The notes under the pieces are model-generated. The model saw only the letters and a program-made list of their open reading frames with translations. It ran no database searches and was not told the DNA's origin. Shown in pieces: positions 1,759 to 17,779 of a stretch of 23,169 bases of DNA. Position numbers and translations under genes: made by a program. Source of the DNA: Candidatus Desantisiibacteriota bacterium (GTDB lineage Bacteria; JACRDZ01); contig JACQWU010000312.1 of assembly GCA_016209155.1 (NCBI GenBank), forward strand, positions 1 to 23,169. The letters are read 5' to 3'. Position 1 is the first letter of the stretch. Each line of letters starts with the position of its first letter.

Positions 1759-1808
1759 AAAACCTTCGCCGGCTAAATCTAAACATAGATTCAGCCGGCG
1801 AAGGTTTT
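1759..1808. terminator. Long hairpin with A/T tracts on both sides (bidirectional terminator-like)
   Basis: An almost perfect stem of about 21 bp, with one mismatched pair between two paired blocks and an AACA loop at 1782-1785. The GC-rich part includes CTTCGCCGGCT and its complement. A-rich sequence precedes the stem and T-rich sequence follows it, so it could stop transcription from either side. It lies about 10 bases upstream of the ribosome binding site of the chimeric ORF, an odd place for a terminator. That suggests attenuation or a rearrangement breakpoint nearby. Confidence 0.6.
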
Positions 1809-1882: not shown

Positions 1883-2008
1883 TTATCTGAAAGTGCCATT
1901 AATACGTATGCCTTTTTAAGGCATGGATGAATTGGCACTAAAATAAATGATAAATAATTCCTATCAGAGACAGAAGACACCCTGTAGCTTCTATCACAGG
2001 GTTCTTCC
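1883..2008 (+). repeat. Dispersed two-hairpin element, copy A (divergent)
   Basis: Plus-strand copy of an element of about 128 nt that occurs twice more on the minus strand (12870-12998 and 16889-17017). It begins TTATCTG, has an outer GTGCCA/TGGCAC stem enclosing an inner hairpin (ATGCCTT-TTT-AAGGCAT), then an AT-rich spacer, ATTCCTATCAGAGACAGAAGA, and a second hairpin CCCTGT/ACAGGG ending near TTCTTC. Compared with the other copies it has paired changes in both hairpins (A-T for C-G in the first, T-A for C-G in the second), so structure seems conserved. It lies upstream of the promoter at 2083-2112, so it is not the leader of the following gene if that promoter is used. Confidence 0.8.
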
Positions 2009-2082
2009 TATTTTTCATATAATACCACAAATCAACAAATTTGCAAGGTTTTTTTACTTATTCAGCCAAACACAAAATATTA

Positions 2083-5522: not shown

Positions 5523-5556
5523 ATATAACCTGAATCTTGCACTTCAGATTCAGGTA
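5523..5556 (-). terminator. Hairpin terminator, identical to one at 17019-17051
   Basis: Stem ACCTGAATCT (5528-5537) with AGATTCAGGT (5546-5555) and an 8-base loop. The 33 bases 5523-5555 are identical to 17019-17051. Both copies lie just downstream of minus-strand genes, which fits a mobile or duplicated terminator. Confidence 0.7.
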
Positions 5557-11895: not shown

Positions 11896-12150
11896 GTGCC
11901 AACTCATAAAGCTGCAGAAAAAAGAATACGTGCTGATAAAAAACTAAGCCTGCGCAATGCATCAGCAAAATCTACATTGAGAACTTTACGCAATAAAGTA
12001 CTGAAGGAAACAAACAAAGAAGAAGCTGTTAAAACATTAAACACGGCAATTTCAGGCTTTGACAAAGCAGCACAAAAGGGAATTATTCATAAAAATACTG
12101 CTGCGCGTAAAATTTCCCGTTTAGCAAAAAAAGTAAATGCAATAAAATAA
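11896..12150 (+). CDS. rpsT: 30S ribosomal protein S20
   Basis: 84 residues, the normal length of bS20, which binds 16S rRNA early in small-subunit assembly. Typical features are the N-terminal HKAAEKRIRADKKLSLRN, the Lys/Arg-rich helices and the conserved KGIIHKNTAARKISRLAKK end. The start is a GTG at 11896 preceded by AAAAGGGGG; S20 genes often use non-ATG starts. It is a single gene on the plus strand with its own promoter, followed by a hairpin at 12155-12175 that could end transcription from either direction. Confidence 0.97.
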   Translation: MPTHKAAEKRIRADKKLSLRNASAKSTLRTLRNKVLKETNKEEAVKTLNTAISGFDKAAQKGIIHKNTAARKISRLAKKVNAIK

Positions 12151-12154
12151 AGAA

Positions 12155-12175
12155 CCCTGTGGCAGAACCACAGGG
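12155..12175. terminator. Hairpin between convergent rpsT and lptE
   Basis: CCCTGTGG (12155-12162) pairs with CCACAGGG (12168-12175) around a 5-base loop. The T-rich flank is on the minus-strand side, so it suits transcription from lptE better than from rpsT. Its stem resembles the second hairpin of the dispersed element, but the rest of that element is absent. Confidence 0.55.
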
Positions 12176-12237
12176 CATATTCCGTCTCTTAAAACTTTTT
12201 ATTTCAACCGGTTCAGTTCACCGGCATTTCAGATAAA

Positions 12238-12819: not shown

Positions 12820-12842
12820 GCGAGGCTAAAGCCTCGCACTAC
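12820..12842 (-). repeat. REP-like hairpin with GTAG head
   Basis: On the minus strand: GTAG (12842-12839), T, then GCGAGGCT-TT-AGCCTCGC, a perfect 8-bp stem. Same architecture as 412-436 with a different stem, which fits a REP-like family whose stems covary. Confidence 0.5.
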
Positions 12843-12869
12843 AAATACAATATATTTAATAAATTTAAT

Positions 12870-12998
12870 GAAGATACCCTGCGGCAGAGACCGCAGGGTA
12901 TCTTCTGTCTCTGATAGGAATTCTTTATTATTTATTTTTGTGCCAATTCATCCCTGCCTTAGAAAGGCAGGGTATTAATGGCACATCCAGATAAAAAT
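12870..12998 (-). repeat. Dispersed two-hairpin element, copy B, abutting the tmRNA 3' end
   Basis: 129 bases on the minus strand, nearly identical to copy C (16889-17017): one indel and two substitutions by eye. It has the outer GTGCCA/TGGCAC stem, the inner CCCTGCCTT-TCT-AAGGCAGGG hairpin, and the terminal CCCTGCGG/CCGCAGGG hairpin, whose loop strand GTCTCTG can instead pair with CAGAGAC upstream. The first base follows the CCA end of tmRNA directly, and lptE starts about 90 bases further on. It may end tmRNA transcription. Origin (mobile element or structured RNA) is unresolved. Confidence 0.85.
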
Positions 12999-13375
12999 TG
13001 GTGGAGACGGTGGGAATTGAACCCACGTCCGAAAATAGTTTATTATCTGCATCTACATACTTAGTTCAGATTTTTTTTCTTACCTTAAAATCTCCTCTGA
13101 ACAGGACACCTGAAAAAAAGTTCAGGCATAAATTTTAAAGCGCAGCCTATATGAATTTCGCCATACCGCTTCGGCGTTGGCACAGCTATTCTGCCATAAT
13201 CGACATTCAGCATAACCTTGCAGACCAGGCCATGAAGAACGTAGCAAACTTATTTAACTAAGCTGCTAAAGCTAATTCTTGGTTAGCATTTAAATGTTTC
13301 CATTTGTTTTACGAGCCAATGGGACCTCGGTATGCAGCCTATAACTCCCTAAATCCGTCGAACCCTTTCGTCCCC
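12999..13375 (-). ncRNA. ssrA: tmRNA (transfer-messenger RNA)
   Basis: A one-piece tmRNA of 377 nt including an encoded CCA. The 5' end GGGGACG (13375-13369) pairs with CGTCTCC near the 3' end to form the tRNA-like acceptor stem, followed by AAAGGGTTCGACGG, typical of tmRNA. The 3' part has the T arm GTGGG-TTCAATT-CCCAC and ends ACCA. The tag reading frame is at 13287-13258: GCT resume codon, then a peptide reading ANQELALAA and a TAG stop, with the LAA ending that targets tagged proteins to proteases. It rescues stalled ribosomes together with SmpB, whose gene is not in the window. Its first 37 bases overlap the 3' end of cooC. Confidence 0.95.
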
Positions 13376-14296: not shown

Positions 14297-16111
14297 ATGA
14301 TTTCAAAAAAATCTATTTATTTTATAATTGCTTTTATCCTGATGTCCTTTATAGCGCGGAATATTATAGCAGGGGCAGATTATCTTGATATAGAAAAGAA
14401 AGCTAAAGAGGATATAACCAGATTTGAAAATGAAAAACAAAATGCGAAAAAAAATGTTGAGATAGCCTATTATGATTTTTTACTGGCTGAACGCTACCTG
14501 CTCTATCCGCATCGTAATATCGATAAAGCGGTAAAATTACTGGAAGAAATTTCAGAAATTGATCCTAAAGGAAAATATGGCGATGATGCTTTATTTTTTC
14601 TTGGATACATATTTAGAAAAGAAAAAAAAGATGCGGAAAACTCACTGAAATATTTTAAACTTTTGCTGGAGAAATATTCCAATGGAGCAGATAATACTGA
14701 ATATTTTTATGATGACATTTATAGTACACGAAATAAAAAAACCTGGAATGATGATGCCGAGTATCAGATTGGAATAATTAATAGATTTATGCTCAAGGAT
14801 ACAAATGCCGCTATTGAAAACTTCCAAAAATTACTTATAAATTATCCTAAAAGTCCTTTTGCAAATGATGCCTTATATGAAATGGCTTTGATCTATGAAG
14901 AAAATCAGGATTGGGAAAAAGCTTATGAATTATATCAAAGAATTTGTGAAGAATATCCGTTTGGCACAGCCGATCTTTATTTAAGAGGAACAATGAGCGC
15001 AAGTCTGCTTGCCAAACAAAAAATTGAAGCGCTTCACCTTCAGCATAATACTCCTCCATTCACATTAAAAAATAGTTCTTTTATTAATCCTGATACTGAA
15101 CTGGAATGCAAACTCCTTACAAAGGAAGCCATACCCGAAGGAGAAAATGTAAAAATTTTATTTGAAAGAACGAATAAATCATCTTATCCGATAATTCTTT
15201 CCAGTGTATATTCTGTTGAAAAGGATTCAACCCCTTCTTTCTGGTCACGCTGGGGTTCAACTGAATATACAGTTACATGGATTAATACCAGAGCCGGTGA
15301 TCTAAGATATAACGAAGGAGAAAAACGCATGGATGAATTTCCGGTATTAAAACAACTCACCCCTGACTGGTATCCATATGCATCCGGACTTTTACTCCCC
15401 GGACAATCAAAAAGCTTTTCTTTAAAACAATATATACAAAATGAAAATCCAATAAAGATTAAACTGATTTACCTTCCTGTTTCTTTCAGCAGATTATCGG
15501 AAGCAACTGTTTCTCTGTCAATTTATAAAAAAATACCTAATTTTACTGCCGGCTTTAATGTAAGCGGGGCAGTTTCATACGGACATCCTATCGCAGAGGA
15601 ACTTGAACAGGGAAGACACGGGATATTAATTTTTACTATCGGAGGACTTCCTGATTTTTCCGAATATGAATATTCTTTTACAGTTAAAACTAAAGCACAG
15701 GAATTTTCCTTAAGCAAAGCTATTGAAGCAATCGGCGGAACCAGGCCTGATAATTTTTTATATTCAAAAAAATCTAATGCATGGATTTTATCCTCAGATA
15801 ATAATTTATGGATAGTAACAAAAAATACAGTGGATAAATTATCAAATATTTCTTTCCATGTTTTTGAATATATAGAAAACAATTCATTTAAACCTATGCT
15901 TTTTATAAAAGGAGACACACCCAATATAAATAAACATCCATTGATTAAAAAATTAACATCGGTTTATAAAAGCGAAATAAAAGAAAATTTTATAATTATA
16001 TCCTTAAAAGATGAGGATGTACTTGAAGTAATAAAAGAACTTAATAAAAACGAATTACGGATAACAGTAGACTCATGGTATCTGAATCCTATATTATTGG
16101 TAAGTGAGTAG
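14297..16111 (+). CDS. Exported TPR-repeat protein of unknown function
   Basis: 604 residues with an N-terminal signal or anchor (KKSIYFIIAFILMSFIA). Residues of about 45-220 hold tetratricopeptide-like repeats of the YbgF/BamD style: AVKLLEEISEIDPKGKYGDD followed by ALFFLGYIF, NAAIENFQKLLINYPKSPFA then NDALYEMALIYEE, and AYELYQRICEEYPFG. Such repeats mediate protein contacts in the periplasm. The remaining 380 residues are beta-rich and unfamiliar to me; they include SFWSRWGSTEYTVTW and a GLLLPGQSKSFSL segment. ATG at 14297 with GGGAG eight bases upstream, and its own promoter. The last 23 bases overlap the convergent pth gene with no terminator between them, so the two transcripts must overlap. 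Confidence 0.75.
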   Translation: MISKKSIYFIIAFILMSFIARNIIAGADYLDIEKKAKEDITRFENEKQNAKKNVEIAYYDFLLAERYLLYPHRNIDKAVKLLEEISEIDPKGKYGDDALFFLGYIFRKEKKDAENSLKYFKLLLEKYSNGADNTEYFYDDIYSTRNKKTWNDDAEYQIGIINRFMLKDTNAAIENFQKLLINYPKSPFANDALYEMALIYEENQDWEKAYELYQRICEEYPFGTADLYLRGTMSASLLAKQKIEALHLQHNTPPFTLKNSSFINPDTELECKLLTKEAIPEGENVKILFERTNKSSYPIILSSVYSVEKDSTPSFWSRWGSTEYTVTWINTRAGDLRYNEGEKRMDEFPVLKQLTPDWYPYASGLLLPGQSKSFSLKQYIQNENPIKIKLIYLPVSFSRLSEATVSLSIYKKIPNFTAGFNVSGAVSYGHPIAEELEQGRHGILIFTIGGLPDFSEYEYSFTVKTKAQEFSLSKAIEAIGGTRPDNFLYSKKSNAWILSSDNNLWIVTKNTVDKLSNISFHVFEYIENNSFKPMLFIKGDTPNINKHPLIKKLTSVYKSEIKENFIIISLKDEDVLEVIKELNKNELRITVDSWYLNPILLVSE

Positions 16112-16706
16112 ACCCGGGGTTAAGATCAATCGCATTAAATTTATTCATAGCGCATGATATCCCGTCATTGATAAAAACATCTACCGCCTTTATCGCAGTT
16201 TTAATGATATTCTCTTTAATCAGAGTAATTTCTTCACCTGTAAAATTCATAAGCACATATTTTTTTAAATCTAATTTTGATAAACTATCTCCAATACCAA
16301 TTCTAAGACGCGGGAATTTATCTGTACTAAGGCTGTCAATTATTGACAACAGCCCATTATGTCCGCCATGAGTTCCGGACGGACGAAAACGGAATTTTCC
16401 AAATGGAATATTTACATCATCGCTTATTATCAAAATATCTTCGAGAGAAATAGAAAAATCCATAATCAGTTCGCTGAGCGCTTTACCGCTGGAATTCATA
16501 TAAGTCTCTGGTTTTGCAATTATTATTTTTTTACCGTCCTGTTCCGATTCATTTATCATTGCCAGTAAACTATTACACTTTTTAAAATTGAAATTCACAT
16601 TATGATATGCGGCATAAGCATCAACAACTAAAAATCCGATATTATGTCTTGTAAAAGAATATTTCTGACCCGGGTTCCCCAGCCCAACTATTAATTTGCG
16701 TATCAT
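16089..16706 (-). CDS. pth: Peptidyl-tRNA hydrolase
   Basis: 205 residues, slightly longer than the usual 185-195. It hydrolyses peptidyl-tRNA released from stalled ribosomes. Family motifs: LIVGLGNPGQKYSFTRHNIGF with the catalytic His, PETYMNSSGKAL, the catalytic Asp in ISDDVNIPFGKFRFRP, and GTHGGHNGLLSI. ATG at 16706; the ribosome binding site is weak (GAGA). It is the last gene of the conserved spoVG-glmU-prs-rplY-pth order, but a MITE-like element and copy C of the dispersed element separate it from rplY, so it may need its own promoter. Its 3' end overlaps the convergent TPR gene. Confidence 0.96.
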   Translation of the reverse strand: MIRKLIVGLGNPGQKYSFTRHNIGFLVVDAYAAYHNVNFNFKKCNSLLAMINESEQDGKKIIIAKPETYMNSSGKALSELIMDFSISLEDILIISDDVNIPFGKFRFRPSGTHGGHNGLLSIIDSLSTDKFPRLRIGIGDSLSKLDLKKYVLMNFTGEEITLIKENIIKTAIKAVDVFINDGISCAMNKFNAIDLNPGSTHLPII

Positions 16707-16725: not shown

Positions 16726-16880
16726 GGGGCTGCCCAAAAAGGTACTAAACACCGCTTTATGTCATTCCCGCGAAAGCGGGAATCCAGTATTTAAGCCATT
16801 GTTCTAAAAGCTGGATTTCGCATCAAAGCCTGTCCTCAACTAGATTGGGGATGCGGAATGACACCTTTTTGGACAGCCCC
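16726..16880. mobile_element. MITE-like palindromic element
   Basis: 155 bases bounded by 18-bp inverted ends, GGGGCTGCCCAAAAAGGT on the left and its complement with one mismatch on the right. Inside are inverted GTCATTCC blocks and an 8-bp hairpin with a GAAA loop (16764-16783). It has no coding capacity, and no convincing target duplication is visible. The shape fits a non-autonomous element moved by a transposase elsewhere. Confidence 0.65.
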
Positions 16881-16888
16881 TCTCTTAT

Positions 16889-17017
16889 GAAGAACCCTGC
16901 GGCAGAGACCGCAGGGTATCTTCTGTCTCTGATAGGAATTCTTTATTATTTATTTTTATGCCAATTTATCCCTGCCTTAGAAAGGCAGGGTATTAATGGC
17001 ACATCCAGATAAAAATT
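16889..17017 (-). repeat. Dispersed two-hairpin element, copy C
   Basis: Nearly identical to copy B. A G-to-A change at the foot of the outer stem turns a G-C pair into a G-U wobble and so keeps pairing. It is flanked by the MITE-like element on one side and the rplY terminator on the other, upstream of pth on the same strand. Confidence 0.85.
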
Positions 17018-17018
17018 C

Positions 17019-17052
17019 ATATAACCTGAATCTTGCACTTCAGATTCAGGTT
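17019..17052 (-). terminator. rplY terminator hairpin, identical to 5523-5555
   Basis: AACCTGAATCT (17023-17033) pairs with AGATTCAGGTT (17042-17052), a perfect 11-bp stem 4 bases past the rplY stop. 33 bases are shared exactly with the hairpin downstream of the Rhs remnant. Confidence 0.75.
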
Positions 17053-17056
17053 ATTA

Positions 17057-17779
17057 CTATTTTTTTTCTTTGGTTTCTTTAGTAGCTTCTTTTGGAGTTT
17101 CCTTAGCTTCTTCTGCTTTACCTTTCTTAGCCACTAATTCCGGTTCAGCTGCCGCAGTAGTTCCTGCAGCTGCCTCTTCTTTCTTAACTACTTTTTCTTC
17201 TTCTTCTTTACGTATTGTTGAAACAACAACTATAGTCATATCAGGCTGTGATACAATTCTAACCTTGTCAATTGGAGGAATAGATTTAACATGATATGAT
17301 TCGCCGATTTTTAAAGCTGTAACATCAATAGTGATATTCGGGGGAACATCCTGCGGGAAACATTCTACTTCAATCTCATGAACCAGATATTCAAGAACAC
17401 CTCCGGATTTTACCCCTTCTGCTTTACCCTGAACTTTTACAGGAACCGAAATACGTATTTTCTTATCCAGTGCAACCTGCTGAAAATCCACATGAATAAC
17501 ATTATCTGTCAGTGGATTCTTCTGAATATTTTTCAATATAGCTGTTTTTGTACCGATAACAGCATCATTTTCATCAATCAGTTTGAGAGGTAAAATAATA
17601 TGTTCGTTTTCCTGATTTGCCATAAGTTTTGAAAATGTATTTGCACTCACGGTAATATTTGTATTCTGCTCATTATTACCATAAATTATACCCGGTATCT
17701 GACCTGTCTTTCTCATTTTTTTTGCTTTGCTTTTGCCCTTACTTTCTCTTATTTTAACAACTAATTCTATCTGTTCCAA
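17057..17779 (-). CDS. rplY: 50S ribosomal protein L25/general stress protein CTC
   Basis: 240 residues, the two-domain TL5/CTC form of bL25, which binds 5S rRNA. The N-terminal domain has ESKGKSKAKKMRKTGQIPGI, IYGNN and the NPLTDNVIHVDFQQV strand; the C-terminal domain has VPVKVQGKAEGVKSGGVLEY. A charged Lys/Glu/Ala-rich tail of about 45 residues (EEEEKVVKKEEAAAGTTAAA onward) is low complexity and probably disordered. The start is a TTG at 17779 with AGGAG seven bases upstream. It lies downstream of prs in the conserved order and is followed by its own terminator. Confidence 0.95.
   Translation of the reverse strand: MEQIELVVKIRESKGKSKAKKMRKTGQIPGIIYGNNEQNTNITVSANTFSKLMANQENEHIILPLKLIDENDAVIGTKTAILKNIQKNPLTDNVIHVDFQQVALDKKIRISVPVKVQGKAEGVKSGGVLEYLVHEIEVECFPQDVPPNITIDVTALKIGESYHVKSIPPIDKVRIVSQPDMTIVVVSTIRKEEEEKVVKKEEAAAGTTAAAEPELVAKKGKAEEAKETPKEATKETKEKK

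What the first reader, a model, noticed from the sequence alone, without database searches (positions are those of the whole stretch)
1883..2008. Three-copy element of two hairpins with compensatory changes (copies at 1883, 12870, 16889)
The copies share about 128 nt: TTATCTG start, nested stem, AT-rich spacer, CAGAGACAGAAGA, and a second hairpin. Copy A differs from B and C by paired substitutions in both hairpins, and copy C keeps a stem by a wobble. In B and C a CAGAGAC/GTCTCTG pairing competes with the terminal hairpin. Two hairpins near the ends resemble non-autonomous IS200/IS605-type elements, and structure conservation also fits an unknown RNA. Copy A lies upstream of a good promoter, which argues against a leader riboswitch there.
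Basis: partly seen in the sequence, partly recalled or inferred. Interest (0 to 1): 0.6.

Follow-up and report, generated by a model that had tools for sequence, protein, structure and literature searches.

The report
Dispersed two-hairpin mobile DNA repeat
The three copies belong to a family of at least 50 short, gene-less repeats scattered between the genes of one poorly sampled bacterium; they look like miniature single-stranded-DNA transposons with a hairpin at each end, a known kind of element in a new family.

Summary
The three ~127-bp copies are members of a family with about 55 full or partial copies in the same 3.08-Mb draft genome, including a fourth, degenerate copy in the window (12147-12236). 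The family was not found in the other genomes of its phylum held here, in 59 relatives, in GTDB contigs (exact pattern) or in plasmids. Ends are sharp: TTTATCTG on the left, TTCTTCAT on the right. Flanks are unrelated, 45 of 46 copies are intergenic, and orientation to genes is random. There are no terminal inverted repeats and no target duplication. This is the anatomy of a PATE: a transposase-free IS200/IS605-style element with near-terminal palindromes, apparently inserted 3' of TTTAT.

The paired changes are real (hairpin 2: 7 of 20,000 shuffles reach the observed pairing) but do not prove an RNA. At least eight copies turned the imperfect hairpin 1 into a near-perfect palindrome, six using the 5' arm as template and two the 3' arm: the signature of template switching on DNA hairpins. 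Orientation follows GC skew (44 of 63), as lagging-strand transposition predicts, but weakly.

The cognate transposase was not found: six Y1 genes exist, none flanked by these ends; the genome is 79% complete. New member of a known kind.

The parts
1883..2009 (+). Element copy A (full length, divergent subfamily; TTATCTG...TTCTTCCT); upstream base G instead of the usual T
   Evidence: 136.5 bits
1892..1939 (+). Hairpin 1 of copy A (left, imperfect, nested)
   Evidence: DNA fold; alignment
1973..2007 (+). Hairpin 2 of copy A (right, next to the right terminus)
12868..12994 (-). Element copy B (full length), 4 nt beyond the 3' end of the tmRNA gene
   Evidence: (155.1 bits)
12939..12985 (-). Hairpin 1 of copy B
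12870..12905 (-). Hairpin 2 of copy B
16887..17012 (-). Element copy C (full length), between the ORFs at 16089-16706 and 17057-17779
   Evidence: 158.2 bits
16957..17003 (-). Hairpin 1 of copy C
16889..16923 (-). Hairpin 2 of copy C
12147..12236 (-). Fourth, degenerate copy (TTATCTG...ACAGGGTTCTTTAT), with a different hairpin 1, abutting the end of the ORF at 11896-12150
   Evidence: E 9.2e-6; z -3.8

Best explanation
A multi-copy family of ~120-130-bp transposase-free mobile DNA elements of the PATE kind (palindrome-associated, IS200/IS605-like). Shown: copies scattered with sharp, fixed ends and unrelated flanks, a hairpin near each end, no terminal inverted repeats, no target duplication. 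Inferred: a Y1 (HUH) transposase acting in trans binds the two hairpins on single-stranded lagging-strand template, cuts after TTTAT on the left and after TTCAT on the right, and inserts the excised single strand 3' of another TTTAT. Copies then decay by deletions across the hairpins, and hairpin arms are rewritten by template switching during replication, which makes a share of the compensatory changes.
For: About 55 copies by covariance model (56 matches at E<=1e-5 in 0.70 Mb of fetched contigs; whole genome; blastn; pattern 43 hits against 0 for the reversed control). Left base -1 is T in 38 of 46 copies (TTTAT) and the right end is TTCTTCAT in nearly all, followed by unrelated A/T-rich DNA. 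No target duplication: longest flank repeat 4.42 against 4.35 (sd 0.19) in shuffles; no terminal inverted repeat. 45 of 46 copies intergenic although ~87% of those contigs is in ORFs; gene context ++ 13, -- 12, divergent 11, convergent 5. Orientation agrees with the sign of contig GC skew in 44 of 63 copies (p 0.002; 37 of 56 after counting each contig and strand once, p 0.02). Pairwise identity 57-100%, including copies on C70 and C77 with equal top score, which suggests continuing amplification. Hairpin-2 arms pair better within copies than between copies (7 of 20,000 shuffles reach it). Quasi-palindrome conversions in hairpin 1 in both directions. PATE definition and IS200/IS605 mechanism from PMC3119063, PMC6006769, PMC7290912.
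Against: No transposase carries these ends. The six Y1_Tnp genes in the assembly have other repeats in their flanks where inspected, and none has a full element within 1.5 kb. No TnpB. No empty site is available because no close relative is held, so actual movement and the exact cut positions are not shown. Some solitary left-end-only and right-end-only copies exist, which plain IS200-type transposition does not make directly. The skew test is confounded by gene orientation and draft contigs, and is not significant on strong-skew contigs alone (23 of 36, p 0.13).
Confidence: 0.68

Rival explanations
1. REP/BIME/REPIN-type repeat mobilised by a domesticated TnpA-REP (RAYT), one of the Y1 genes in this genome.
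For: Six Y1 genes of this broad kind exist; two-hairpin, intergenic, high-copy repeats are typical of REPINs (PMC3116915, PMC6006769).
Against: The two hairpins are not inverted copies of one REP, carry no GT[AG]G tag at the foot, and do not occur beside any of the six genes; a GTAG-tagged REP is present as a separate repeat.
Confidence: 0.14
2. A structured RNA gene or cis-regulatory RNA family present in many copies.
For: Stable folds (the hairpins fold on either strand) and paired substitutions in both hairpins.
Against: Random orientation to genes, including between divergent genes; only 9 of 32 copies keep the competing pairing; internal deletions of hairpin 1; no Rfam match at gathering score and only chance-level scores below it; paired changes are also expected from template switching (PMC8794818, abstract).
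Confidence: 0.08
3. RNA-mediated (SINE-like) repeat copied by one of the reverse transcriptases of the genome.
For: Reverse transcriptase genes are present; several right-end-only copies begin near the base of hairpin 1, as if synthesis stopped there.
Against: Left end is as sharp as the right end and preceded by a fixed T; left-end-only copies exist; no 3' tail; no target duplication. The apparent boundary near hairpin 1 is blurred by AT-rich sequence.
Confidence: 0.05
4. DDE-transposon MITE or simple segmental duplication.
For: Short, repeated, non-coding.
Against: No terminal inverted repeats, no target duplication, unrelated flanks around the copies.
Confidence: 0.03

Closest known systems
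PATEs (palindrome-associated transposable elements) of Haloquadratum walsbyi (PMC3119063)
   Same: Transposase-free; palindromes near both termini; no terminal inverted repeats; no target duplication; short left targeting sequence; internal and core deletions; other small repeats found joined to them within the left palindrome.
   Different: Not known to be related in sequence; bacterial candidate phylum instead of haloarchaea; no IS605-type transposon with the same ends found; the two hairpins differ from each other.
IS200/IS605 family insertion sequences (IS608, ISDra2)
   Same: Subterminal hairpins, insertion 3' of a fixed 4-5 nt sequence, orientation bias expected with the lagging-strand template.
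   Different: No tnpA or tnpB inside; the TTTAT target and TTCAT right end are inferred here; hairpin 1 is longer and nested.
REP/REPIN with TnpA-REP (RAYT)
   Same: Intergenic, high copy, hairpins, single-stranded DNA model.
   Different: No GT[AG]G tag, no inverted REP pair, no RAYT beside copies.
ERIC and similar ~127-bp intergenic repeats (from memory)
   Same: Length, intergenic placement, extensive secondary structure.
   Different: ERIC is one long palindrome; this has two separate, unlike hairpins.

Membership tests
PATE / non-autonomous IS200/IS605-type element | Palindromes near both termini | tested here: met
PATE / non-autonomous IS200/IS605-type element | No terminal inverted repeats | tested here: met
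   TTATCTGGATGTGCCATTAA against ATGAAGAACCCTGCGGCAGA
PATE / non-autonomous IS200/IS605-type element | No target duplication | tested here: met
   31 copies, flanks only; no empty site available
PATE / non-autonomous IS200/IS605-type element | Too short to encode a transposase; several dispersed copies | tested here: met
PATE / non-autonomous IS200/IS605-type element | Fixed 4-5 nt targeting sequence flanking the left end | tested here: inconclusive
   T at -1 in 38 of 46, then TTAT conserved; whether TTTAT is target or part of the element is not resolved
PATE / non-autonomous IS200/IS605-type element | Ends shared with an IS200/IS605 transposon (tnpA) | tested here: not met
   six Y1 genes, none with these ends; genome 79% complete, so the absence is weak
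PATE / non-autonomous IS200/IS605-type element | Lagging-strand-template orientation bias | tested here: inconclusive
   44 of 63 with positive GC skew, p 0.002 naive, 0.02 deduplicated, 0.13 for strong-skew contigs only
PATE / non-autonomous IS200/IS605-type element | Guide sequence at the hairpin foot pairing with the cleavage site | not testable with these tools
   candidates GGA(A/T) at hairpin 1 and GAAGA at hairpin 2 are inference only
REP/REPIN (TnpA-REP) | GT[AG]G tetranucleotide at the foot, REP pair in inverted orientation, beside tnpA-REP | tested here: not met
Rfam-described RNA family | Match at gathering score | tested here: not met

The most novel reading that the evidence does not exclude
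A two-hairpin single-stranded DNA element moved by an enzyme other than a classical IS200-type TnpA, for example a diverged RAYT acting on a non-REP substrate, since no Y1 gene in the assembly carries its ends.
Probability: 0.2. Interest if true: 0.5.

Novelty: new member of a known kind. Interest (0 to 1): 0.3.

Why it matters
It adds an abundant PATE-like family in a poorly sampled bacterial candidate phylum. It also shows a trap for RNA discovery: dispersed DNA hairpins can show compensatory changes, partly made by template switching, so covariation among paralogous copies in one genome is not enough to call a structured RNA. The set of about 55 copies, with quasi-palindrome conversions in both directions, is a usable natural record of that mutation process.

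Tried and rejected
Rfam: nothing. Relatives in the same phylum: only chance-level scores (E 0.03-0.08). GTDB exact left-end pattern and plasmids: none. IMG/VR matches to CTATCAGAGACAGAAGA are chance 17-mers in unrelated sequence. TnpB (PF07282): absent. Y2 transposase (PF04986): nothing, but the control also rang nowhere, so uninformative. Empty-site search by joining flanks against the fetched contigs: no convincing site. First hairpin-2 arm test was out of register and was redone. Naming the organism by its PRPP-synthetase-like protein: best hits 63% or less across many phyla, no placement. RNAalifold on the full 32-row alignment loses inner pairs, probably because of gap placement and the decayed row L190; pair counts rest on A1 and the arm test.

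Full report
Observation. They align over their whole length, and what lies outside differs. Folded as single-stranded DNA, each is far more stable than dinucleotide shuffles (z -5.5, -9.9, -6.8), with two hairpins in every case. The paired changes between A and B/C are partly compensatory and partly broken.

Census. The window is one contig of a 3.08-Mb, 352-contig genome, 79% complete. Blastn with copy B gave about 40 places beyond self-palindrome matches; the left-end pattern with up to 2 mismatches gave 43 matches in this genome, none in 59 others, and 0 for the reversed control in this genome. A covariance model from 13 diverse copies found 102 matches at E<=1 in the genome, some of them the opposite strand of the same palindromes, and 56 at E<=1e-5 in the contigs fetched. 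Same-phylum genomes gave only E 0.03-0.08. GTDB contigs and plasmids gave none. A fourth, degenerate copy lies in the window at 12147-12236.

Anatomy. Consensus: TTATCTG(G/A)A(T/A) - hairpin 1 (GTGCCATTAATACCCTGCCTTTCTAAGGCAGGGATGAATTGGCAC) - AAAATAAATAATAAAGAATTCC - TATCAGAGACAGAAGA - hairpin 2 (TACCCTGCGG..CCGCAGGG) - TTCTTCAT. The base before TTATCTG is T in 38 of 46 copies, so the conserved left edge is TTTAT. There is no terminal inverted repeat, and flank repeats are no longer than in shuffled flanks (4.42 against 4.35, sd 0.19).

Placement. By a simple ORF heuristic, 45 of 46 copies are intergenic although about 87% of those contigs is in ORFs; neighbouring gene directions relative to the element are ++ 13, -- 12, -+ 11, +- 5. 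This argues against a consistent leader or terminator role. Copy orientation agrees with the sign of contig GC skew in 44 of 63 (p 0.002; 37 of 56, p 0.02, when each contig and strand counts once; 23 of 36, p 0.13, for strong skew). That is the direction expected if the top strand is taken from the lagging-strand template, but gene orientation also shapes skew, so it is weak support.

Paired changes. Hairpin-2 arms pair better within than between copies: 5.59 of 7 against 5.06 (sd 0.135), 7 of 20,000 shuffles. Hairpin 1 is normally imperfect (ATTAATAC opposite ATGAAT). In at least six copies the 3' side has been rewritten to match the 5' side (L112, L159 at 19.4 kb, L167 at 1.45 kb, L169, L176, L208), giving long perfect or nearly perfect palindromes, and in two (L178, L181) the 5' side matches the 3' side. 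Such block changes toward perfect palindromes are the known outcome of template switching in quasipalindromes (PMC7202029), and template switching has been reported to create and maintain hairpins (PMC8794818; abstracts). So the covariation shows that the hairpins form and matter, or are copied, as DNA; it does not by itself show an RNA. A few copies carry mismatched arms of two types (L177, L180), as expected of recombination between copies. Others have lost hairpin 1 or the whole core (L109, L110, L094, and C84 at 13.2 kb), which recalls the core deletions of PATEs (PMC3119063).

Mechanism. Shown: dispersal, fixed ends, hairpins, no duplication. Inferred: single-strand excision and insertion by a Y1 transposase in trans, cutting after TTTAT and TTCAT. 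The assembly has six Y1_Tnp genes; two show a DnaA-like C-terminal domain below the Pfam cut-off, a feature described for TnpA-REP subclass 2.1 (PMC6006769). None has the element ends within 1.5 kb. TnpB is absent. The enzyme may lie in the missing fifth of the genome, be lost, or be one of these six.

Comparison. The published PATE definition (no terminal inverted repeats, palindromes close to the termini, no target duplication, too short to code; PMC3119063) fits on each of these features. The one feature tested and not met is ends shared with an IS200/IS605 transposon; therefore I describe it as PATE-like and as working like an IS200/IS605 derivative, not as a proven member of that family.

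Verdict. Real, multi-copy, mobile-looking; a new family of a known kind; modest interest.

Noticed in passing
window 12868-12994 and L172 18984-19112: Two element copies begin 2-4 nt beyond the 3' end of a structural RNA gene: copy B after tmRNA (12999-13375, -) and another after tRNA-Glu (L172 18907-18981). Only 7 such genes were found in the contigs checked.
   Followed up: partly
window 16726-16880: A separate repeat with inverted ends GGGGCTG(T/C)CCAAAAAGG...CCTTTTTGGACAGCCCC lies just beyond the right end of copy C; 12 matches to its end in 0.69 Mb. In L092 and L098 similar ends follow directly on the left part of this family's hairpin 1.
   Followed up: partly
window 12820-12842: REP-like hairpin with a GTAG tag (GTAGTGCGAGGCTTTAGCCTCGC), 18 matches with up to 3 mismatches in 0.69 Mb, 0 for the reversed control; resembles the repeats beside the Y1 gene on C349.
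   Followed up: partly
window 17025-17050 and 5529-5554: Another dispersed hairpin, CCTGAATCTTGCACTTCAGATTCAGG, 6 matches in 0.69 Mb.
   Followed up: no
window 1760-1807: A strong terminator-like inverted repeat (20 pairs, 4-8 nt loop, T-rich tail on the - strand) just upstream of the start of the - strand ORF at 856-1737.
   Followed up: no
L035 1042-2121 (G000:C89): A Y1 transposase domain lies in frame inside a longer ORF that looks like a DNA methylase or restriction gene, flanked by translated repeat sequence (GQAFLPV...MSDLP).
   Followed up: no
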